Shown one piece after another: positions 83 through 14,481 of a stretch of 64,000 nucleotides of DNA. Location: positions 1 through 64,000 of the forward strand of contig JACQPN010000008.1 in assembly GCA_016207515.1 (NCBI GenBank). Direction: 5' to 3'. Below the pieces are notes generated by a model. The model saw nothing but the letters and a program-made list of their open reading frames with translations, did no database searches and had not been told where the DNA came from. The position numbers and the translations under genes are program-made. Source of the stretch: Euryarchaeota archaeon. Its GTDB lineage: Archaea; Thermoplasmatota; SW-10-69-26; JACQPN01. Within the stretch, counting starts at the first letter, position 1; the number at the start of each line of letters is the position of its first letter.

Positions 83-140
83 TATGGGACTGGGCACTTT
101 TCAAATGGCGATTCTGGGCACTTTTGGGCCGGCGCTTACA
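83..140. mobile_element. Terminal end of an IS21-family insertion sequence
   Basis: Two exact copies of the 12-mer CTGGGCACTTTT lie at 90-101 and 114-125, spaced 24 bp apart, between the IstB-like tail and the broken recombinase. Multiple short terminal repeats after istB are typical of IS21-family ends. The element probably ends at ...CTTACA at 140, so read from the other strand it begins with TG, as IS21 elements usually do. The other end lies outside the window. Confidence 0.5.
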
Positions 141-636
141 CGCGTCCTGCGCTCTCGTATAGGAGCATGATTAGGGCGCGGTCGCGCGGGTGGTTCGTGG
201 CGTCAGCCAGGCTCTTGATCTCGCCGGGCGATAGGAGGTCCTTGGGAAGTTTGTGTGATTGCAAGGGGTTGCCCGTCTTGATCCATGCGACGAGTGGGGG
301 ATGTGTTTGCGCGTCGGGTGCCAGGAGGTCCTTGTAGAAACTCTTCAGGAATCGTTTGGCGCCTGCCACGGTTTCGGGCGCGCAACGGTTGGACATTTCG
401 CTCAGGTAGGCCTTGATGTCGTTCCTGGTGGCCTTCTTGTAGGGTTTCTTCAGGTGGCGTCCCCAGAGGCGCGCATGCTTGGCTTTGAACGTGCGCGTTA
501 CGATTGATTGACCTGCCAAGTGCCAATCCTGATCCAACCCCAACAACGTCTCCCTCTGGCCCTTCGTGAAATCTGGGGATTCCCATTCGCGCTTGAGCTC
601 CTGCTCTCGACGAGTATTCAACCATTCTGCCTCCAT
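136..636 (-). pseudogene. Tyrosine recombinase/integrase, N-terminal fragment interrupted by an IS
   Basis: The 166-residue product has a SAM-like core-binding domain (about residues 25-110) followed by the beginning of the catalytic domain. It reaches DRALIMLLYESAGR, where the last Arg matches the first catalytic Arg of tyrosine recombinases. Translation then runs into the IS end: the final GTG and TAA codons use IS bases, so the rest of the catalytic domain (HxxR and Tyr) is lost. The fragment lies at the left edge of the accessory island and may be the integrase that once moved it. It resembles archaeal XerA/phage-type integrases, and the fragment itself is presumably inactive. Confidence 0.75.
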
Positions 637-4000: not shown

Positions 4001-4060
4001 ATAGGTTCAGCCGGTCATCAAGGCAGCGGAAGTCTCTTCGGGAGCCCAACCTTGGAGATT

Positions 4061-4109
4061 GGGACTTCTTTGTCTTCTCACATAGTCTGCGGTTCCCTGT
4101 CTCGGACCG
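4061..4109. repeat. Left copy of an approximately 49-bp imperfect direct repeat
   Basis: This stretch matches 9251-9300 in the same orientation at about 40 of 49 positions with one gap, including the exact block CTTCTCAC and, further on, TCCCTGTCTC. The right copy covers the last codons and stop of the HerA-type ATPase gene. The left copy lies in the non-coding gap upstream of the DUF4145 gene start, so it may be a relic of a similar gene end. Confidence 0.55.
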
Positions 4110-5740: not shown

Positions 5741-7648
5741 TCACATGAGAGGGTCGTCACCTTTGCCAATGAGGACGAGTTGCGTCGAACGCCTTCCGTC
5801 TTCGACGATTTCGCCGGCGCGTCGTAGTTCGCGCACAGCAGCTAGGCGGCCGAATCTTGATGGGAGGCGGGGGAGGATGTCCTGTTCCAGTGTCAGGAGA
5901 TCAATCTTTTTCGTACGCAGTTCGGCAAGGAATCTGTCTCGATCGCGGAGTTTCGCCAGCCCGTGACGGGTCGTGACGACGGCCATGCGGATCCGTTCTA
6001 CCCCTCGTGCTGAGAGGGGTTCCCGCATGGCCGTCGCTTTGCGCGCAACCTCTTCGGCGACAGATTTGTCGCCGTGTGCGGTGGGCGAGAGCGTGCATTC
6101 GGCGACTAGCGCCTCCTTTGTCGATTCGTTGATGGCAACGATATCGATCTCCATTGGAGTCCCTAGAACAGTCGCCTCATCATAGGAAACGTGGACCTCG
6201 CCAAACCCAATCTGTTCGAAATACAACTTTGCCGCAAGTTCGAGGAAGACGCCGAGAAGTTCTGAGGCCTGCGATTCGAGTTCTCGAACGCGAACGCGAA
6301 CATAATCCGTGGGGGCCAATTCTTCTCGCATCCGGCCGCGGTTTCCGTATTTCCTCGTCCATTCGGCCTTGAAGAAACCCGTTAGGTCTTCGAGCGTCAC
6401 GTTGCTTGTTGTGACGTTCACGTCGTGGGCATACCGAGTCAAGGCGTGTTCCACTTCCTGGAGTTCGGAGTTGGCGAAGCCACTGGCCGGACTTCCCACC
6501 TTAGTGAATATGAGCCAGCCAGAGTAGTCGCTGATCGAGGTTCGGCGTTCGAGGAGTACGCCGAAGCTGTACCAACCGTCGTCTGCATGATGGAACCGAA
6601 GTATCTCGACTTTGTCCGGGTTGTCGTTCCCACGCTTGACAACGATCTCACCTATGAGGAGCGATACGACGGAGGACGCACCCGAGAAGATCTTGTGATG
6701 TCCAGAGTCAATCACTTCGAATTGATGCCAAATCATGGCCTCCCGAATCTTGTCGTGTAAGGTTAATTGAGGCGAGCCGCTGGGTCTCAGCAGATCCGGA
6801 AACAAGGCTTTGGCCGCCGCTGCTTGCACGAGAAAGACATCAGACAGAATAGGATCCCAACCGACTTCTCGGTCCATCCGGTCGACGCATTCTGAGCGAA
6901 CCCGAGCGTTGAGTGAGTCGAACTTTTCCCAAGAGGTCGCGTCAAGCGTGGCCTTGACGATTGGCGCGTTCGTATCGCCCAGTAGCGTTGACCAAAGGTA
7001 CCCGCATCCGGCCGCATATCCAATAAGGATCGTTTTTTCGGTCTTCGGGTGTTGTCTCAGGCGTGTGGGGGAGTCCGTCATTGCTGCCTCGAACCTGTGG
7101 AGGTCGTGTCCGATGTCCCACACCCAGAACCGTGCCGAATAGTTGGTCAGATCTTCGAGGGTCACGTTTGGGGCCTTCGTCCGGTCGATTGCGCCGCACG
7201 CGTAGAGGACTTTTCGCAACGGCCCGGTGAAAATCTTCTCAATCTCTCCAAGGGCCTCCTCAAGGTCGGCATAGTTCTTGCTTGACGCGATGCGCGTGAA
7301 GATTCGATGCAGATTCTTGTATGCAATAGCTTTTTCACACGTGGGCGGCATCTTTTCGGGGTCGAGGCCCACAAAGAATGCGCGGTGGGTTTTCCAGTCT
7401 TGTTGCAAGCCCAAGAAATCGTCATGCGTAAAACTCGAGAGATAGCGGCCCATCATACGGCGGGCGACGTCGCGGTATCCGACGAAGCATTCGTCAGGCC
7501 TTCGGTTGTGATGGGCCAGAAACTTCTTGAACGTCGAAACGTCCTTGAGAGACGTGACGATGGGGATTATCCAGAAGGTGTCAGGGAACCTACTGGGTGG
7601 GGTAAGACTGGAGCCCTCATCAATCGGCGCAGTCGTTAGCTCCTTCAT
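5741..7648 (-). CDS. Large protein of unknown family with a restriction-nuclease-like C-terminus
   Basis: This is a 635-residue soluble protein. Near the C-terminus it has GTPMEIDIVAIN (Glu500, Asp502) and ALVAECTLSP (Glu517), the layout of a PD-(D/E)XK core except that the expected Lys after the second Glu is a Thr. The octapeptide NVTLEDLT occurs twice, near residues 160 and 415, each followed by an aromatic-rich segment, which suggests two related structural units. A TATA-like CCTTAAAT on the minus strand (about 7669-7677) lies about 25 nt before the ATG, consistent with a leaderless start. The long N-terminal region has no motif I recognise. Confidence 0.6.
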   Translation of the reverse strand: MKELTTAPIDEGSSLTPPSRFPDTFWIIPIVTSLKDVSTFKKFLAHHNRRPDECFVGYRDVARRMMGRYLSSFTHDDFLGLQQDWKTHRAFFVGLDPEKMPPTCEKAIAYKNLHRIFTRIASSKNYADLEEALGEIEKIFTGPLRKVLYACGAIDRTKAPNVTLEDLTNYSARFWVWDIGHDLHRFEAAMTDSPTRLRQHPKTEKTILIGYAAGCGYLWSTLLGDTNAPIVKATLDATSWEKFDSLNARVRSECVDRMDREVGWDPILSDVFLVQAAAAKALFPDLLRPSGSPQLTLHDKIREAMIWHQFEVIDSGHHKIFSGASSVVSLLIGEIVVKRGNDNPDKVEILRFHHADDGWYSFGVLLERRTSISDYSGWLIFTKVGSPASGFANSELQEVEHALTRYAHDVNVTTSNVTLEDLTGFFKAEWTRKYGNRGRMREELAPTDYVRVRVRELESQASELLGVFLELAAKLYFEQIGFGEVHVSYDEATVLGTPMEIDIVAINESTKEALVAECTLSPTAHGDKSVAEEVARKATAMREPLSARGVERIRMAVVTTRHGLAKLRDRDRFLAELRTKKIDLLTLEQDILPRLPSRFGRLAAVRELRRAGEIVEDGRRSTQLVLIGKGDDPLM

Positions 7649-8024: not shown

Positions 8025-9107
8025 TCATCCTAGGAACGTTCTGGACCAAGCTGTCATCGTCGCGGGGGCCAATGGTAATTTGCAGTATTGGTTCGTGAGT
8101 ACCATGATCTCTTCCGAGTATGGGGGCCTGGTTGCGCGTCGGGCGTAGTTTTGGCCTTCGACGTGGAGGAACTTGTTCTCGGGGGAGAAATCTAGGATTT
8201 CGTTTCGGAGGATCACGGATAGGACGTGGGGGTATTCGGCCACCGCTTCGCCGAGTTCTCGAAGGTTTGTGGCCCGTTCTCCCATTTCGTCGTCCCACGG
8301 GAAGAAGTTGAATGGGACGCTTATGACGATTGCTCCGGGCGTGTTCGTCGGGAGCTGTCCTTGTTCGTTTCGAATTTTCGTCTTAACTCGTCTTGTCGTG
8401 TCCGGCGTGGTCGGAGGGCCTGAAAACCCCTGGAGCTTATTGTCCTCCTTCCAATCCTGAAGGAATTGGGAGTCACTGCGTGGCGCGACACCAAGTTGGA
8501 GAACATCGGGAACGTTCACGATTTCGGTTCTACCGGTTTTTGTCGCAGTCGCAACCGCCTTTTGTGTTCGTCGAACCAATTCTTGGAGCAAAGGTTTGGA
8601 TGGCGTTCGAAGCATGCGTCCGGCGAATTCAATTCCGGGTTTTCCCCCAACGAGGCGGATCAATTCGTCGAAGGCGGCATATGCGCGCTTCTCCGCTATG
8701 CTTGCTCCCAATGCCGCGAGTTCTACGTGGATTTGGTCGTTGGTTTCTTGGTTGGTTATGACGAGATCCGGTACTCTTGGTCCTCCGTTGATGACGACCG
8801 GTGGGTCAAATTCGATTTTGAAGCCCTTGGCAACGAGGCGCGCGGCAATCTGGCTTACATCCCATCCCTCCTGCCACTTTTCGGGGGTTCGAAGACGTTT
8901 TGTGACCGTGTGGAACCGCGGCGCATCCTGGATGACGCGGAGGTCTTCTGCGAGTTGGGCGAGAACGATTCGTGTCCACGGTGCGAGGTTCGTGACGAAG
9001 TCACGCAGGGGATGACGGATCTTCCAGATGTCGTTTCCGAAAAGTTTGTCAAAGTCATCAAATGCGCGTCGTGCGGCTTCCCGTTGGTACTTCGTCAAAC
9101 CCGTCAT
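8025..9107 (-). CDS. Putative nuclease-like protein downstream of the HerA-type ATPase
   Basis: From the Met at 9107 the product is 360 residues. The frame is open up to 9296, so a longer start overlapping the ATPase gene is possible, but the extra residues look low in information. The central part has FKIEFDPPVVINGGPRVPDL and, after a turn, IHVELAAL, which fits the first two acidic positions of a PD-(D/E)XK fold (Asp114, Glu129), although the usual Lys is absent. Directly following a HerA-family ATPase, it occupies the place where NurA-type or other nuclease partners are found. The partnership is inferred from position; the family is unknown to me. Confidence 0.55.
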   Translation of the reverse strand: MTGLTKYQREAARRAFDDFDKLFGNDIWKIRHPLRDFVTNLAPWTRIVLAQLAEDLRVIQDAPRFHTVTKRLRTPEKWQEGWDVSQIAARLVAKGFKIEFDPPVVINGGPRVPDLVITNQETNDQIHVELAALGASIAEKRAYAAFDELIRLVGGKPGIEFAGRMLRTPSKPLLQELVRRTQKAVATATKTGRTEIVNVPDVLQLGVAPRSDSQFLQDWKEDNKLQGFSGPPTTPDTTRRVKTKIRNEQGQLPTNTPGAIVISVPFNFFPWDDEMGERATNLRELGEAVAEYPHVLSVILRNEILDFSPENKFLHVEGQNYARRATRPPYSEEIMVLTNQYCKLPLAPATMTAWSRTFLG

Positions 9108-9250
9108 GGTGCTAGCGTGGTCCGCCAATCCCTCCCAGGTGAGTTCATGTGGCAACGGCCTGGTGAGCTGTTCGGTCACTGCTGGCCGAAGGCAATGCGT
9201 AGCATTATGGCTTTCCCCATCACCCCCAATGTTCTCATGGACTTGGCTTT

Positions 9251-9300
9251 GAGACCTCTTTGCCTTCTCACGTAGTGTCGGGTTTCCCTGTCTCAAACCG
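9251..9300. repeat. Right copy of the imperfect direct repeat, at the end of the HerA-type gene
   Basis: This is the partner of 4061-4109, at about 82 percent identity by eye over 49 positions. It includes the stop codon and the last codons of the ATPase gene. Together the two copies bracket the 5.1-kb segment that carries three nuclease-like genes and could have served for recombination or be scars of module exchange. Confidence 0.55.
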
Positions 9301-11652
9301 GTAGGCGAGCCACGCTCCCGCGCGCGTCTCGACGAATATGGCCACCTGTATCGTCGTGGGCTCTCCGGACTGTGCGAAGTGGCTGGCTCCGGCTTGAAGG
9401 ACCCTGTTCATCGTCACGTCGTCGGCGACCACGAACCTCGCCTCGGCCTGGAGTTCGAGGGACTTGCGGAGATTCTCTAGGACTTGTTCGTCGCGGTTGC
9501 TTCCAGTTTCCACTTCTATGGCCTTTTCGCGTCCGTCTTCCAAGTACAGAATGTCAAACCTTGGATCTGGCACCCTCTCGATCCCGAGCAGCCTCGTTAC
9601 TTCATCCACCATCGCCTTGTGGTCTCCTTTGGCGCGGTGTATTCGATCCGGCGCTCGCCCGTTTCGCATCGTGTAGGCTTCCACGCCCCACGGTCGCAGG
9701 TAATAGATGCTTGGCGGCCTTCCTTGGCCCGTATGGGCTTTCGCGTAGGCTACGAGTCCGAGTCCGATGAGTCTCGTAAGGCTCGCTCCTGCGGCGTTCT
9801 GGCTTCGCTTGAGAAGCATCCGGATGGCCCTAGGGTTGATTGCCTTGGATTCGGCTATCGCGTTGAATACGGCCCAATCGCGCCCCGTGAGGCGTGATAG
9901 GCGTTTCTCCAGTTCTGCCCGTTCCGCGTAGTTCAGGTGTCGTTGGGATGGGTTTGGGACCCCTTGGGACAGGGCGTCGTCCCTAACCACTGACCGCGCG
10001 ACCTCGGGGATTTGGGCGAGGTTCAGGCCATCGGTTCGGACGAGGGCTTGCCCGGTCCGAAGGCCTGTCACCAATCCCTCCGCCCCGTCATTTTGCCGGA
10101 GGAGGGTGTTGGCCAGATTCACGTCCTGGGGTCGGACCAGGCGGTGGATGATGAAGGTGTTGACGTTGGCGAGGGCGTGCTTGCTCAACTCGCTCGGCAA
10201 CTGGGTCACGAAGACGAGCCCGACGCCGAGGTAGCGTATCTCTCGACATGTCGTCGTGAGGACGGACGTGGATTCTTGACCCATGGCGAGGAGATGTTGG
10301 GCTTCTTCGAAGACGATCAAGTGCCGGAGCGCGTCGGTCGGTCCCCGTTCGAGTTTGTGTCGAATCTTTTGGAGTAGGACGCTCACGAGTAGGGCAGCGC
10401 CGGCATGGTCCCCAAGGCCGTCGAGTTCGACGATGGTTACGCCTTCGATTAGCGTTTCGAGTGCGATTCCCTCTCGTACGCAGAACGCTTGCCGCGTCGA
10501 CCCAATCATGAGTGACCGGAGAACGCGCAGGGCCGACGAGCTCCACCCAGCCTCGCGACCCATCGTGGGCCGCTTCTCCAATGCTTCAATCAAGTCGCCC
10601 ATGTGTGGGTAGTTGACGCTGCCATCGTAGATGCCGCGTTCCTGATAGAGTTTGTCCAACGTCTCGGCGACGATGTCTTTGCTCCCCACGGCTGGGACGT
10701 ACCTGTTGATGACTTCGCTGAAGATGCTGCTGAACTCCTTCACCCACTGGGCGGGCGCGCCCACGGGTTTCAACAAGTTGTGCGTCAAAAGGTTCCGACC
10801 CGAGAATCCCAGGACTCTTGCCCCACTCGTCGCGTGTAACGAGCGGTATTCTTTCTTCACGTCGAAGACGAGGACGCCCTTGACGTGGGGCTGGGCCTCC
10901 TGAATTAGTCGGAAGACGGTGTTCGTTTTTCCAGCGCCCGTCGTTCCAGCCACAAGCGCGTGCTGATTTAGCGCTTGAAGCGTGACGAATGCTGGTCCAA
11001 GTGGTTTTCCATTGATCGGGCTCAGGATATCGCCGAGGCGGATCGCCGCATCCAGCGGTGGCCCCGACACTTCCCCAATTGAAGACGCGCTGTCGGCGAC
11101 CGGCAGGTCGGGAAATAGTGGAAGCGAGAACCGCGTCAGGATCCGTGGCCGAAGCGCCCGGCCACTGGCCAACCCTTCGAAAGCCTCGACGCCTATCTCT
11201 TCTGTTTCTCGAAAGAACTGCCGGACGACGTGGATTGCGGGTCGCTCGGTGGCCACGGCGAAGCTCGTCACTCGGCCCCGGTCTTGGACGAGCAAGCGCA
11301 TTCTCGCCCGCACTCCCAATTGAAGTAGGGTCATACACGCCTCGGGTAGGCGATCGTTCGCGTAGACGCACGAATACGCGTAGCGAAGTCGGGCCGGAGG
11401 CGGGGAGCCGGGCTTTGAATGCACAACATAGTCGGCCGAGAGGACCTCGCGCGCGCGTTGAAGGATGCGTCCGTTTCGTTCCCGTCCGAATAGTCCTTGG
11501 CGCCACGCGTCGAGGTAGACGCGTGGGACGCCGTCGAGGTCAATGGTGAGTAGCCAGTCGGCGGGTATCCATGGTACCCGGTGGCGTCCATCCCTCGGCG
11601 CGTACGCGAGGAGGTTAATCTGTTCCGCCAAGGTTTCCACCAAACCTCGCAA
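9268..11652 (-). CDS. HerA/FtsK-type ATPase with a nuclease-like C-terminal domain
   Basis: The 794-residue product has an N-terminal beta-rich region (about 1-200, HAS-barrel-like), a P-loop VAGTTGAGKTNT (Walker A, 236-243), FDVKKEYRSL, and Walker B LIVFEEAQHLL (445-452) followed by FVTQLPSEL, all typical of the HerA-FtsK superfamily of hexameric DNA-pumping ATPases. A winged-helix-like segment follows (about 600-670), then a domain with FDILYLEDG and KAIEVETG (about 700-760) that fits a PD-(D/E)XK-type fold. The start is uncertain: TTG 11652, GTG 11640 and TTG 11631 are all in frame, and all overlap the preceding small membrane-protein gene. It is the last core gene of the ubiquitin-like operon. 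I infer DNA translocation and perhaps cleavage controlled by the conjugation system. Confidence 0.8.
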   Translation of the reverse strand: MRGLVETLAEQINLLAYAPRDGRHRVPWIPADWLLTIDLDGVPRVYLDAWRQGLFGRERNGRILQRAREVLSADYVVHSKPGSPPPARLRYAYSCVYANDRLPEACMTLLQLGVRARMRLLVQDRGRVTSFAVATERPAIHVVRQFFRETEEIGVEAFEGLASGRALRPRILTRFSLPLFPDLPVADSASSIGEVSGPPLDAAIRLGDILSPINGKPLGPAFVTLQALNQHALVAGTTGAGKTNTVFRLIQEAQPHVKGVLVFDVKKEYRSLHATSGARVLGFSGRNLLTHNLLKPVGAPAQWVKEFSSIFSEVINRYVPAVGSKDIVAETLDKLYQERGIYDGSVNYPHMGDLIEALEKRPTMGREAGWSSSALRVLRSLMIGSTRQAFCVREGIALETLIEGVTIVELDGLGDHAGAALLVSVLLQKIRHKLERGPTDALRHLIVFEEAQHLLAMGQESTSVLTTTCREIRYLGVGLVFVTQLPSELSKHALANVNTFIIHRLVRPQDVNLANTLLRQNDGAEGLVTGLRTGQALVRTDGLNLAQIPEVARSVVRDDALSQGVPNPSQRHLNYAERAELEKRLSRLTGRDWAVFNAIAESKAINPRAIRMLLKRSQNAAGASLTRLIGLGLVAYAKAHTGQGRPPSIYYLRPWGVEAYTMRNGRAPDRIHRAKGDHKAMVDEVTRLLGIERVPDPRFDILYLEDGREKAIEVETGSNRDEQVLENLRKSLELQAEARFVVADDVTMNRVLQAGASHFAQSGEPTTIQVAIFVETRAGAWLAYRFETGKPDTT

Positions 11653-11803
11653 GGACAGTGATGACGAGGATGATGACTGCGATGACTATGATGAGGCTTC
11701 GCCAGAGGTTCTCAATGTTGAAGGTGAAGGCGAAGATGAAGTAGGTCAAGATGAGGATGAGGAAGATTGTGAGGAGTTGTACGTGCTTCGAGTAGTCAGC
11801 CAC
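11615..11803 (-). CDS. Small two-helix membrane protein (third of three)
   Basis: The 62-residue product from GTG 11803 has two hydrophobic helices (about residues 9-27 and 36-55) joined by FNIENLWRS. This linker and the helix after it match KMEDLWMS plus helix in the preceding gene, so the two are probably paralogs from a tandem duplication. A GGAGG sequence lies seven bases before the GTG, which is why I prefer it to the upstream ATG at 11833. It overlaps its neighbours by 8 nt upstream and up to 38 nt downstream. No function is known. Confidence 0.65.
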   Translation of the reverse strand: MADYSKHVQLLTIFLILILTYFIFAFTFNIENLWRSLIIVIAVIILVITVLARFGGNLGGTD

Positions 11804-12017
11804 GTGGTCGCCTCCACTCCGTCCGCCACGCATACTCCGCGTGATAGGCGAGGACGACGCCTACGAGCAATTTGATTACCACGATTACGACAAGGATGGC
11901 CCCTCCGGTAGACATCCAGAGGTCCTCCATCTTGAGCATGAAGGCGGCGATGAAGAGCACGATCAGTGCCACGAGAACGAAGATGACGATTTTCGTGGGG
12001 TCGTCCACGTCCGTCAA
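11796..12017 (-). CDS. Small two-helix membrane protein (second of three)
   Basis: The 73-residue product starts at TTG 12017, which overlaps the stop of the previous gene as TTGA. That arrangement is shared by other coupled genes here, so I choose it over an ATG far upstream inside the E1 gene. It has an acidic N-terminus (TDVDDPTK), two strongly hydrophobic helices (about 9-28 and 37-56) linked by KMEDLWMS, and a basic C-terminal tail with WRTEWRRPRG. It resembles the 62-residue protein encoded next. The role is unknown, but its fixed place between E1 and ATPase suggests a membrane anchor or target for the system. Confidence 0.65.
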   Translation of the reverse strand: MTDVDDPTKIVIFVLVALIVLFIAAFMLKMEDLWMSTGGAILVVIVVIKLLVGVVLAYHAEYAWRTEWRRPRG

Positions 12018-12253
12018 GGCGTCGCCCCCGTCGGCTGCAGGTGTTCCCTGTTGAGGATCCAGACTAGGAGCGAGCTGAGGAGTAGTACGCCCACGAAGGG
12101 AAGGACCAGCGAGGCGAGGAGAAGGGCAGTGTAGAGCCATGTGTGCCGGGCCCGTACTACCGTAGCTCCAAGAACCAGAAGGACGACAGTAAGGAGGTTG
12201 ATGATCGTCTTGGCGATATACACGACTGCGGCGACTATGGCGCCCCGCTGCAT
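12014..12253 (-). CDS. Small membrane protein (first of three)
   Basis: The 79-residue product begins with ATG 12253, 19 nt inside the end of the E1 gene, and has two or three hydrophobic stretches: IVAAVVYIAKTIINLLTVV, VLLVLGATVV and LYTALLLASLVLPFVGVLLL. The hydrophilic tail is ILNREHLQPTGATP. It does not share the EDLW-type linker of the two following small proteins. Overlap with both neighbours shows co-translation within the ubiquitin-like operon. No homologous family is recognised. Confidence 0.65.
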   Translation of the reverse strand: MQRGAIVAAVVYIAKTIINLLTVVLLVLGATVVRARHTWLYTALLLASLVLPFVGVLLLSSLLVWILNREHLQPTGATP

Positions 12254-12939
12254 ATTTCACACTCGGGATTCTTCTCAAGGTTGTTGGTGTAGAACTGGCC
12301 CCTCTGGAGGTCAATGAAGACATGCCCTTTGACGCCGCTTCCATGGGCGACCTTGACGATTTGGATGGCCTGTACGTTGGCGACGACGGCCGCCGTCACG
12401 TAGGTGGAGGGAATCGGGTCTTGCGAGCAAGAGGCCTTTTTTGGCGCTACGGGAAGGATGGGGTGGCACGCGAGGCATGCGCCGTTTCCCGGTCGCACCG
12501 TCGTTACCGTCCCCTGGAACCGGTTGATGCCGGCGTCCACGAGGATGTTTCCCGTCGTTACGCCGAGGAAGTTGGCATAGTGGCGGGTGGCTATGTTGTC
12601 GACACCGCTGCAGAGTATGGTTCCTTTCAGGTCGGCCGTGACGTTCTCAAGCCTGCCGATAAAGGTCTTGATGTTGATTGACGGGTCGATTTTCCGGAGG
12701 CGTTCGGCGAGCGCAATTACCTTGGGTTTTCCGATGTCGGAATGGTCGTAGAGTTGGTTTTCAAGGTTGTGTTCTTCGAGCGTGTCGGGGTCGATGAGGG
12801 TGAGCTCACCAACCCCGAGACGCGCGAGCGCCGCGGCAAGTTGGGAACCGAGGGCGCCGCATCCGATTATCGCCACTCGAAGGGCGCGGACCGCGTACTG
12901 GTTCCATCCTTCGATTAGCGTTTGTCGTTCGTGGCGCAT
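12235..12939 (-). CDS. E1-like (ThiF/MoeB/UBA superfamily) adenylating enzyme
   Basis: The 234-residue single-domain E1 starts at the ATG that shares one base with the JAB stop (TAATG). It opens with RHERQ, the usual Arg-rich entry of the family, then the nucleotide loop IIGCGALGSQ (residues 24-33), Asp50 at the end of the second strand, and SGVDNIATR (Asp114, Arg119). Two CxxC pairs (Cys155/158 and Cys227/230) should bind zinc. Cys171 in KASCSQDPIPS sits in the crossover loop and is the best candidate for the thioester-forming cysteine. ThiF-type E1s adenylate the C-terminal glycine of a ubiquitin-like protein. Here the partner would be the upstream ubiquitin-like/E2 product, after or before processing at its Gly-Gly. 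Confidence 0.88.
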   Translation of the reverse strand: MRHERQTLIEGWNQYAVRALRVAIIGCGALGSQLAAALARLGVGELTLIDPDTLEEHNLENQLYDHSDIGKPKVIALAERLRKIDPSINIKTFIGRLENVTADLKGTILCSGVDNIATRHYANFLGVTTGNILVDAGINRFQGTVTTVRPGNGACLACHPILPVAPKKASCSQDPIPSTYVTAAVVANVQAIQIVKVAHGSGVKGHVFIDLQRGQFYTNNLEKNPECEICSGAP

Positions 12940-13397
12940 TACTTTCTCGCTCCTATCCGGTGCGGCAGGATCATGCCCTTTCCGTGTTCCACGCGGAAGC
13001 ATCCGAGTCCGACGCCGTCCTTCGTGAACGGGTCGACCACCACGGCCACAAAATCCGCGAAGAGCTGCTGTCCTTGGTGCGTGTGGCGGACATCCAGTCC
13101 GCTGAGGAAGACGCCGAAGGTCGGGTGTCCGTGCCACCATCCGACGGTTGACTGCTTCTTGCGGCAGAGTCGCCTCGCTCTCTCGTAGTCGTTCGCGTCC
13201 AGTTGGATCGTCGTAGCTTCACCGTTTCTGCGAGATCGGGTCGCGTGTTCCACGTAGAGTTTTGAGCCGGTGGCTCTTCCGATTAGCAGTCCTCCCGTTT
13301 CTCTGCCCGTCGCGACGGCTTGCCAGTAGGTGAGTGTGGCCAGTACGCGAGGGTGGATGACGACCGTGGAGGTCTGGGGCGCTTTCGCCCGCATCAT
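12939..13397 (-). CDS. JAB/JAMM (MPN) metallo-isopeptidase
   Basis: The 152-residue product carries a full JAMM signature: Glu33 in GRETGGLLIG, then WWHGHPTFGVFLSGLD giving His89-x-His91-x7-Ser99-x2-Asp102. All zinc-binding and catalytic positions are present, so it should be an active metalloprotease of the Rpn11/Prok-JAB family, which removes ubiquitin-like proteins from lysines or trims their C-termini. Start codons at 13397 and 13394 (ATGATG) overlap the TGA of the upstream gene, and its TAA overlaps the E1 ATG. A likely substrate is the Gly79-Gly80 junction of the ubiquitin-like/E2 fusion, as well as conjugates. This last point is inference. Confidence 0.9.
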   Translation of the reverse strand: MMRAKAPQTSTVVIHPRVLATLTYWQAVATGRETGGLLIGRATGSKLYVEHATRSRRNGEATTIQLDANDYERARRLCRKKQSTVGWWHGHPTFGVFLSGLDVRHTHQGQQLFADFVAVVVDPFTKDGVGLGCFRVEHGKGMILPHRIGARK

Positions 13398-14137
13398 GCC
13401 CCCTCTCCGTAGAGGAGTTTGCGGGCGAGAGTGAGCGGGTCGAGTGTGGGCATCTCGACGACTTCGGAGGCGAGCGGTTCGACGGCGCGGTTCCGGCGGA
13501 TGTAACCCTCGACGTACTCGTTGGGAACGTACCCGGACTTGTAGTCGGGGAACTCCAGGAGCCATTCGATTTCGTCCCAGACGCTCGGGATGTTGTTCAT
13601 GGGGGTCCAGGCGGTGAGGAGATGGTTGAGGCAGACGTAACCGCTCTCCGAGATGTTGGGGTGGCGCGGTTTTGGCTTGGTGAAGAAACGGGGGATGGGG
13701 GGTGTTGCGGGGTAGCTCGGCGGGAGTTCGATCATCAAGTCGAACGTTTGTTGGCGCCACTTGCCCTTGCCGCGCATCGTGCCGCGCCAGAGCAGCGGTG
13801 TTATGGGGCGGAGGGGGATTCCGGCCTGTTGGATGCGCCTCGCTTCATTGGCGATGCGATTCCTTGTCATGCTGGTGAGAAAAAAATTGGGGGACGCGCC
13901 CCCAATCGGGTTGGCGGGCATGCACTTGAGCACTTCGCCCGCTGAGATGCCGAGTTCCTGCACGGTCTTGTTGAGGGGGATTTCCTTCCCATGGCGCACG
14001 AGGCTGATCGCGTTGGGGTCGATTGCTTGCCCTTGACCGACCATCTCGCGCACCTTCATCATCGTGTAGTGCGGTTCCACCTCAAGCTTCATCGGCGTTG
14101 CCGTGCCGACCATGCTACTTATTCCTATTTCCATCAT
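13394..14137 (-). CDS. Ubiquitin-like domain fused to an E2-like conjugating enzyme
   Basis: Residues 16-75 read as a ubiquitin-type beta-grasp: hydrophobic strand, then MKVREMVGQGQ, LVRHGKEIPLNKTVQELGIS and VLKCMP, equivalent to the GK-L...T...I-G pattern of ubiquitin. It ends PIGG (Gly79-Gly80) and then runs into an E2/UBC domain: ELPPSYPATPPIPRF, HPNISESGYVCLNHLL with the catalytic Cys169, and AWTP. About 50 further residues form a C-terminal extension. So modifier and conjugating enzyme are made as one chain. The ATG at 14137 has AGGTGA six bases upstream and a TATA-like box near 14198. It heads the operon whose next genes are JAB and E1. Cleavage after Gly80 would give a free modifier and a separate E2. 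Confidence 0.9.
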   Translation of the reverse strand: MMEIGISSMVGTATPMKLEVEPHYTMMKVREMVGQGQAIDPNAISLVRHGKEIPLNKTVQELGISAGEVLKCMPANPIGGASPNFFLTSMTRNRIANEARRIQQAGIPLRPITPLLWRGTMRGKGKWRQQTFDLMIELPPSYPATPPIPRFFTKPKPRHPNISESGYVCLNHLLTAWTPMNNIPSVWDEIEWLLEFPDYKSGYVPNEYVEGYIRRNRAVEPLASEVVEMPTLDPLTLARKLLYGEGA

Positions 14138-14380: not shown

Positions 14381-14481
14381 CTCGTTTACTTCATGGACGC
14401 TGGTTCGAGTCCACGCGGGGCCGTCACGAGCGGACGCGAATGACGGCAAGCGGACGGAGCGTGAGCGGAGTCCGCGCAGCC

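What the first reader, a model, noticed from the sequence alone, without database searches (positions are those of the whole stretch)
9268..14137. Archaeal ubiquitin-type conjugation operon joined to membrane proteins and a HerA-type ATPase
Seven minus-strand genes overlap in series: Ubl-E2 fusion, JAMM peptidase, E1, three tiny membrane proteins and a HerA/FtsK ATPase. E1, E2 and JAMM active-site residues are all intact. Known relatives by family are the Caldiarchaeum Ub-E1-E2-RING-Rpn11 cluster and the bacterial CBASS Cap2/Cap3, Bil and Bub operons. I know of none with this gene set in this order, and there is no RING E3. An antiviral or plasmid-control role, with the modifier marking membrane or DNA-translocase targets, is my inference.
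Basis: partly seen in the sequence, partly recalled or inferred. Interest (0 to 1): 0.93.

Follow-up and report, generated by a model that had tools for sequence, protein, structure and literature searches.

The report
Archaeal ubiquitin-type operon with DNA translocase
A little-studied archaeon carries a compact seven-gene unit that joins a complete ubiquitin-like tagging and untagging kit to three tiny membrane proteins and a HerA-family, DNA-motor-type ATPase; the same arrangement recurs at three other archaeal loci (one cut off by a contig end), two of the four next to other defence-type genes, which suggests a previously undescribed and probably anti-invader system.

Summary
On the minus strand, 9268-14137, seven genes overlap end to end: Ubl-E2 fusion, JAMM peptidase, MoeB/UBA5-like E1, three small membrane proteins and a HerA-family ATPase. 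E1, E2, JAMM and Walker A motifs are intact. It is not a chance cluster: a second copy with the same seven genes in the same order, plus an extra upstream Ubl gene, lies elsewhere in this genome, and diverged versions lie in two other Thermoplasmatota genomes (one cut by a contig end). HerA and the smallest membrane protein (TM3) are the most conserved parts between the two copies of this genome (70% and 89% identity, against 38-49% for the conjugation enzymes). The linked E2s form their own clade, apart from E2s of HerA-free clusters common in the phylum. Both copies in this genome have a related tyrosine recombinase downstream; SIR2, methyltransferase and GHKL-ATPase genes flank copy B and a TIR gene copy C. 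I found no named family or paper with this gene set. Best reading (inferred): a mobile-island defence module in which a removable Ubl tag controls a membrane-anchored DNA translocase whose tail may be a nuclease. A DNA-transfer machine is the main rival. Function is untested.

The parts
13394..14137 (-). Ubl-E2 fusion, 247 aa; Ubl about res. 1-80 (13898-14137) ending PIGG; E2 core about res. 90-205 with HPN (159-161) and Cys169
   Evidence: Pfam UQ_con 1.4e-16, ubiquitin 4e-4; alignment with paralogue and L061/L060; profile matches eukaryotic E2s and polyubiquitin in PDB
12939..13397 (-). JAMM/JAB metallopeptidase, 152 aa, motif HGHPTFGVFLSGLD
   Evidence: Pfam JAB 1.2e-10, Prok-JAB 6e-6; motif
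12235..12939 (-). E1-like (ThiF/MoeB/UBA5) activating enzyme, 234 aa, Cys171, two CxxC pairs
   Evidence: ThiF 3.1e-42; MoeB 2e-20 and UBA5 2e-15 in PDB; conserved columns
12014..12253 (-). TM1, 79 aa, two hydrophobic segments
   Evidence: hydropathy; counterparts in copies B, C, D
11796..12017 (-). TM2, 73 aa, two hydrophobic segments; C-terminal AYHxEYAWRTEWR shared with copy B; no counterpart recognised in C and D
11615..11803 (-). TM3, 62 aa, two hydrophobic segments; overlaps the HerA start by 17 bp; 89% identical to copy B
   Evidence: homologue in G321
9268..11631 (-). HerA-family ATPase, 787 aa: own N-terminal domain, HerA/FtsK core (Walker A about 10924-10947), winged helix, C-terminal domain possibly restriction-endonuclease-like (about 9271-9690)
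   Evidence: HerA_C 3e-11, DUF87 6e-9, MarR_2 4e-3; PDB HerA 7e-16; REase_AHJR-like E 0.019, below cut-off
8025..9296 (-). ORF directly after HerA (start codon uncertain), no recognised domain, not found at the other cassettes; probable cargo
4059..4103 (-). second remnant of the HerA 3' end plus the following conserved bases; recombination scar
   Evidence: 87% over 46 bp to L004 10038-10083; 2 sites in window against 0 expected; 3 in genome
136..636 (-). N-terminal fragment of a tyrosine recombinase, 51% identical over 165 aa to the intact one downstream of copy B; stops at 136 near the contig end
   Evidence: Phage_int_SAM_4 2e-6; tblastn

Best explanation
A mobile-island defence (anti-virus or anti-plasmid) module. 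The JAMM enzyme frees the Ubl from its E2 fusion at the internal GG; the small E1 activates it and the HPN-type E2 attaches it to a substrate without a dedicated RING E3; the JAMM enzyme also takes it off. The main partner is the HerA ATPase, held at the membrane by TM1-TM3, with TM3 as its closest partner. Tagging switches on, recruits or assembles this (by family, hexameric) translocase, which then acts on incoming DNA, possibly with its own C-terminal nuclease-like domain. Shown: gene content, motifs, order, conserved linkage, strongest conservation on HerA and TM3, recombinase and defence-gene context. Inferred: every biochemical step, the target, membrane anchoring of HerA, and defence.
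For: Gene order conserved at copies A and B of this genome, in G321 (E1, TMs and HerA by sequence; JAMM by motif only; the Ubl/E2 slot by position only) and in SG8-52-3 up to a HerA cut by the contig end. All three full-length HerAs of this type found in 390 phylum genomes lie next to the E1. HerA 70% and TM3 89% identical between A and B against 38-49% for E1/E2/JAB, with synonymous sites near saturation in most genes, so the constraint is not recent copying. Linked E2s are one clade, 95/92. HerA matches mad8, DndH and anti-phage HerA models and PDB HerA chains. Defence genes adjacent: SIR2 (ThsA-like), MTase, GHKL ATPase at B; TIR at C. Related recombinase downstream of A and B. JAMM release of pro-ubiquitin is precedented in Caldiarchaeum (PMC5654768).
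Against: GG after the Ubl is present in A and B but not in SG8-52-3 or G254, so a conjugated modifier is not certain for all. HerA has no predicted membrane helix. The nuclease assignment rests on one sub-threshold match and an unusable fold model. HerA matches are generic to the superfamily. Only four cassettes, and an adjacent defence gene is not proof of defence.
Confidence: 0.42

Rival explanations
1. DNA-transfer machine of an integrative element: HerA/VirB4-like ATPase plus two-helix membrane proteins form a Ced/Ted- or T4SS-like DNA pump, and the Ubl system controls its assembly or turnover.
For: CedA1 and CedA2 are also tiny two-helix proteins encoded with a HerA/VirB4 ATPase (PMC9905601, PMC11868833). 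CedD model matches the ATPase core at 1.8e-15. A related recombinase lies downstream of both copies of this genome. TM3 and HerA are the most conserved parts.
Against: CedD match is 58-68 bits against a cut-off of 600 and the model also hits other HerA-like genes and most control genomes. No CedA/VirB6-like multi-helix channel gene and no relaxase in the cassette. A winged helix and possible nuclease domain at the HerA C-terminus are not described for Ced. SIR2 and TIR neighbours point to defence.
Confidence: 0.25
2. Membrane protein quality control or housekeeping ubiquitylation; the HerA-type ATPase acts on proteins, or is merely co-transcribed.
For: HerA-free E1/Ubl/E2/JAB clusters are common in the phylum: 50 of 390 genomes have an E2 match, some with a free Ubl ending DPEGG and one with a RING-like membrane protein.
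Against: Linked cassettes are very rare and patchy (HerA profile: 3 of 390 genomes, one of them, G072, a weaker match without Ubl genes), duplicated in this genome, and next to recombinases and defence genes; HerA is the conserved core.
Confidence: 0.12
3. The Ubl/E1 pair does sulfur-transfer chemistry (MoaD/ThiS-like) and the E2 is an inactive scaffold.
For: E1 is closest to MoeB/ThiF in size and sequence.
Against: Intact HPN-Cys E2 and JAMM sites; the Ubl matches ubiquitin profiles and not ThiS/MoaD; no cofactor-synthesis genes seen next to it.
Confidence: 0.05

Closest known systems
Caldiarchaeum subterraneum Ub-E1-E2-RING-Rpn11 operon (PMC5654768)
   Same: Archaeal cascade with eukaryote-like E2, ubiquitin-like modifier and a JAMM enzyme that frees a pro-ubiquitin at GG
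   Different: Has a RING E3 and a free pro-ubiquitin, no membrane genes or HerA; here the Ubl is fused to the E2 and the E1 is a small MoeB/UBA5-type protein
Bacterial Bil (BilABCD), Bub and type II CBASS Cap2/Cap3; operon types 6a-6e of Iyer 2006 (PMC1779556)
   Same: E1, E2 and JAB in one operon, often on mobile elements; Bil and CBASS are antiviral; an inactive E2-polyUbl fusion is recorded there
   Different: Different E2 architectures, E1 usually larger or fused, no small membrane proteins and no HerA
HerA-based defence: HerA-DUF4297, HerA-SIR2 (Nezha)
   Same: HerA hexamer as motor of an antiviral complex; a SIR2 gene lies by copy B
   Different: There the effector is a separate nuclease or NADase; no Ubl enzymes, no membrane proteins
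Ced/Ted archaeal DNA import systems (PMC9905601, PMC11868833)
   Same: Two-helix mini membrane proteins encoded with a HerA/VirB4 ATPase
   Different: Have a CedA/VirB6-type channel, absent here; no Ubl genes
HerA-free E1/Ubl/E2/JAB clusters of Thermoplasmatota (found here, L063-L079)
   Same: Related E1, HPN E2 and JAB
   Different: Separate E2 clade, free Ubl in several, no match to this HerA near

Membership tests
Ubiquitin-type conjugation cascade | E1 of ThiF fold with active-site Cys | tested here: met
   ThiF 3e-42; Cys171 aligns with MoeB Cys; invariant in A, B and SG8-52-3. Thioester itself untested
Ubiquitin-type conjugation cascade | E2 fold with HPN and catalytic Cys | tested here: met
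   UQ_con 1.4e-16; HPN and Cys169 invariant in four fusions
Ubiquitin-type conjugation cascade | Ubl with C-terminal GG that can be exposed | tested here: inconclusive
   GG at the Ubl/E2 junction in A and B; absent in SG8-52-3 and G254
Ubiquitin-type conjugation cascade | Ubl-protein adducts in cells or in vitro | not testable with these tools
   needs mass spectrometry or reconstitution
Caldiarchaeum-type operon | RING E3 in the operon | tested here: not met
   none among the seven genes
CBASS type II / Bil | match to system-specific models (Cap2, Cap3, BilA-D) or a CD-NTase | tested here: not met
   only weak generic JAB/E1 matches far below cut-offs, no CD-NTase match among the proteins scanned
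HerA/FtsK superfamily | HerA core with Walker A and B | tested here: met
Ced DNA import | CedB/CedD family membership of the ATPase | tested here: not met
   58-68 bits against cut-off 600 for CedD; CedB 5e-5, 22 bits against 700
Ced DNA import | CedA/VirB6-like multi-helix channel | tested here: not met
   no such gene in the seven-gene unit; only small two-helix proteins
Antiviral defence system | protection against virus or plasmid | not testable with these tools
   context only

The most novel reading that the evidence does not exclude
A ubiquitin-controlled DNA translocase: a reversible Ubl tag directly switches a membrane-anchored HerA-type DNA motor (with a possible built-in nuclease), carried on mobile defence islands of archaea, and thus a link between eukaryote-type ubiquitylation and DNA translocation at the archaeal membrane.
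Probability: 0.3. Interest if true: 0.9.

Novelty: new variant of a known kind. Interest (0 to 1): 0.74.

Why it matters
Eukaryote-type E2s are rare outside eukaryotes, and what archaeal ubiquitin-like cascades with such E2s do is hardly known. A small, self-contained set that ties one to a DNA-motor-type ATPase and membrane proteins would make the questions of target and purpose directly testable, and would add an archaeal branch to the emerging picture that ubiquitin-like tagging is used in prokaryotic antiviral defence.

Tried and rejected
Pattern scans of 84,980 species genomes and of viral contigs with HerA, and of viral contigs with Ubl-E2, found nothing; the E1 scan found only SG8-52-3 in genomes and 77 generic phage ThiF-type hits, not pursued. 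Plasmid and phage collections gave only distant HerA-core matches without Ubl genes annotated in the three neighbourhoods read, and no Ubl-E2 match in plasmids. Structure prediction of the HerA C-terminal domain and N-terminal domain gave pLDDT 39 and 37, so no fold search was run. Ced membership was tested and dropped. A tRNA-like TTCGAGTCC stretch at 14396-14422 looked like an attachment site, but there is no tRNA match and no second copy. G072 and a second G321 HerA were checked: no Ubl enzymes near. A G151 Ubl-E2 remnant lacks the rest; the G107 hit runs into an assembly gap. Recent gene conversion between A and B as the cause of the HerA similarity: third codon positions only 38-56% identical in all but one 150-bp window, so rejected.
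Full report
What is there. The finding is real. On the minus strand of the window, in transcription order: Ubl-E2 (13394-14137), JAMM (12939-13397), E1 (12235-12939), TM1 (12014-12253), TM2 (11796-12017), TM3 (11615-11803), HerA (9268-11631). Neighbours overlap by 4, 1, 19, 4, 8 and 17 bp, so they are very probably one translationally coupled operon (inference). Pfam names the fusion, JAMM, E1 and HerA (the ubiquitin match itself, 4e-4, is below its curated cut-off), and profile searches of the PDB place them with E2s and polyubiquitin, MoeB/UBA5, and HerA chains.

Motifs. E2: HPN at 159-161 and Cys169 (canonical spacing, from general knowledge of E2s). JAMM: HGHPTFGVFLSGLD. E1: two CxxC pairs and Cys171, aligned with the MoeB cysteine. 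HerA: GTTGAGKT. The Ubl ends PIGG immediately before the E2, so release by the JAMM enzyme, as Rpn11 does for Caldiarchaeum pro-ubiquitin, is plausible; but GG is missing in the SG8-52-3 and G254 fusions.

Conservation of the whole set. A DNA search of the same genome found a second copy on contig 2. Reading it (L004) shows Ubl, Ubl-E2, JAMM, E1, TM1, TM2, TM3, HerA in that order, with an SIR2 gene upstream: the same seven genes in the same order plus one extra Ubl. A profile search of 390 genomes of the phylum gave one more full-length HerA, in G321; beside it lie TM3 and TM1 homologues and an E1, then a JAMM-motif protein and a protein with an internal GG, in the same order. Profile comparison did not confirm the last two, so they are assigned by motif and position only. 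A Ubl-E2 search gave the Thermoplasmatales archaeon SG8-52-3 (G195, LSSG01000004.1): Ubl-E2, JAMM, E1, two small membrane proteins, then an ATPase cut at the contig end just past its Walker A; its N-terminal part matches the HerA profile (95.6% probability). The phylum is thus Thermoplasmatota.

Where selection acts. Between copies A and B of this genome, identity is 70% for HerA and 89% for TM3, but 49% E1, 47% TM2, 41% Ubl-E2, 38% JAMM, 27% TM1; synonymous divergence is high in all but TM3. HerA and TM3 are therefore the most constrained parts, and they share a 17-bp gene overlap with identical start codons in both copies. I read this as direct partnership (inference).

Not just any archaeal ubiquitin cluster. 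50 of 390 genomes, this one included, have an E2 match. In 17 of the loci fetched (L063-L079), E2 with JAB and mostly E1, sometimes with a free Ubl, cluster without any match to this HerA; in one other (L018) a weak generic HerA match lies about 5 kb away. One, in the order of this genome, has a RING-like membrane protein. The HerA-linked E2s (with the contig-end G254 one, whose HerA side is not seen) form one clade, 95/92, apart from 23 others. The window's genome itself has no other E2 match.

Context. A tyrosine recombinase lies downstream of copy B on the same strand, and an N-terminal fragment of a related one downstream of A. A second remnant of the HerA 3' end at 4059-4103 marks past recombination. 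Copy B has SIR2, methyltransferase and GHKL ATPase genes near, copy C a TIR gene. To the right of copy A are ordinary genes (redoxin, GatA, GatB). This is the company of a mobile defence island. The seven-gene unit is otherwise rare.

How it may work. I favour a defence module in which the Ubl cycle controls the membrane-held HerA motor (confidence 0.42). A Ced-like DNA transfer machine is the main rival (0.25): small two-helix proteins with a HerA/VirB4 ATPase are its hallmark, but the ATPase fails the CedD cut-off and no channel gene is present. The nuclease idea for the HerA C-terminus rests on a sub-threshold REase_AHJR-like match (E 0.019) and conserved FD...IExETG residues.

Novelty. Components are known; the combination is not in the family libraries or in the papers I could search. 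That library lacks most subscription journals, so absence there is weak evidence. I rate it a new variant of a known kind.

Noticed in passing
window 4059-4103 (-): Second remnant of the HerA 3' end and following bases, 87% like copy B; suggests an earlier element or insertion of about 4.1-9.26 kb between repeats.
   Followed up: partly
window 136-636 (-); L004:15432-16673 (+): Related tyrosine recombinases downstream of both cassettes of this genome; the window one is a fragment next to the contig end.
   Followed up: partly
L070 (G001:C45): E1, Ubl ending PEGG plus a short tail, E2, JAB and a signal-peptide/TM protein with a RING-like cysteine/histidine pattern in one cluster, in the same order as the window's organism.
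   Followed up: no
L066:9372-12044, L067:6256-8895: JAB domain in an 880-890 aa open frame inside HerA-free E2/JAB/E1 clusters.
   Followed up: no
L028:1571-2167 (-): TIR-domain protein about 5 kb from the HerA of cassette C.
   Followed up: no
L004:12713-15211 (-) and 11364-12716 (-): GHKL ATPase (weak Type II REase and TmtA PADLOC matches) next to a DNA methylase-like protein near copy B.
   Followed up: no
window 5741-7648 (-): 635-aa protein without known domain; its C-terminus (EIDIVAINESTKEALVAEC) looks like a PD-(D/E)XK nuclease to the eye.
   Followed up: partly
window 14396-14422 (+): tRNA T-arm-like GGTTCGAGTCC stretch just upstream of the cassette; not a tRNA by ARAGORN or Rfam, unique in the genome.
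   Followed up: yes
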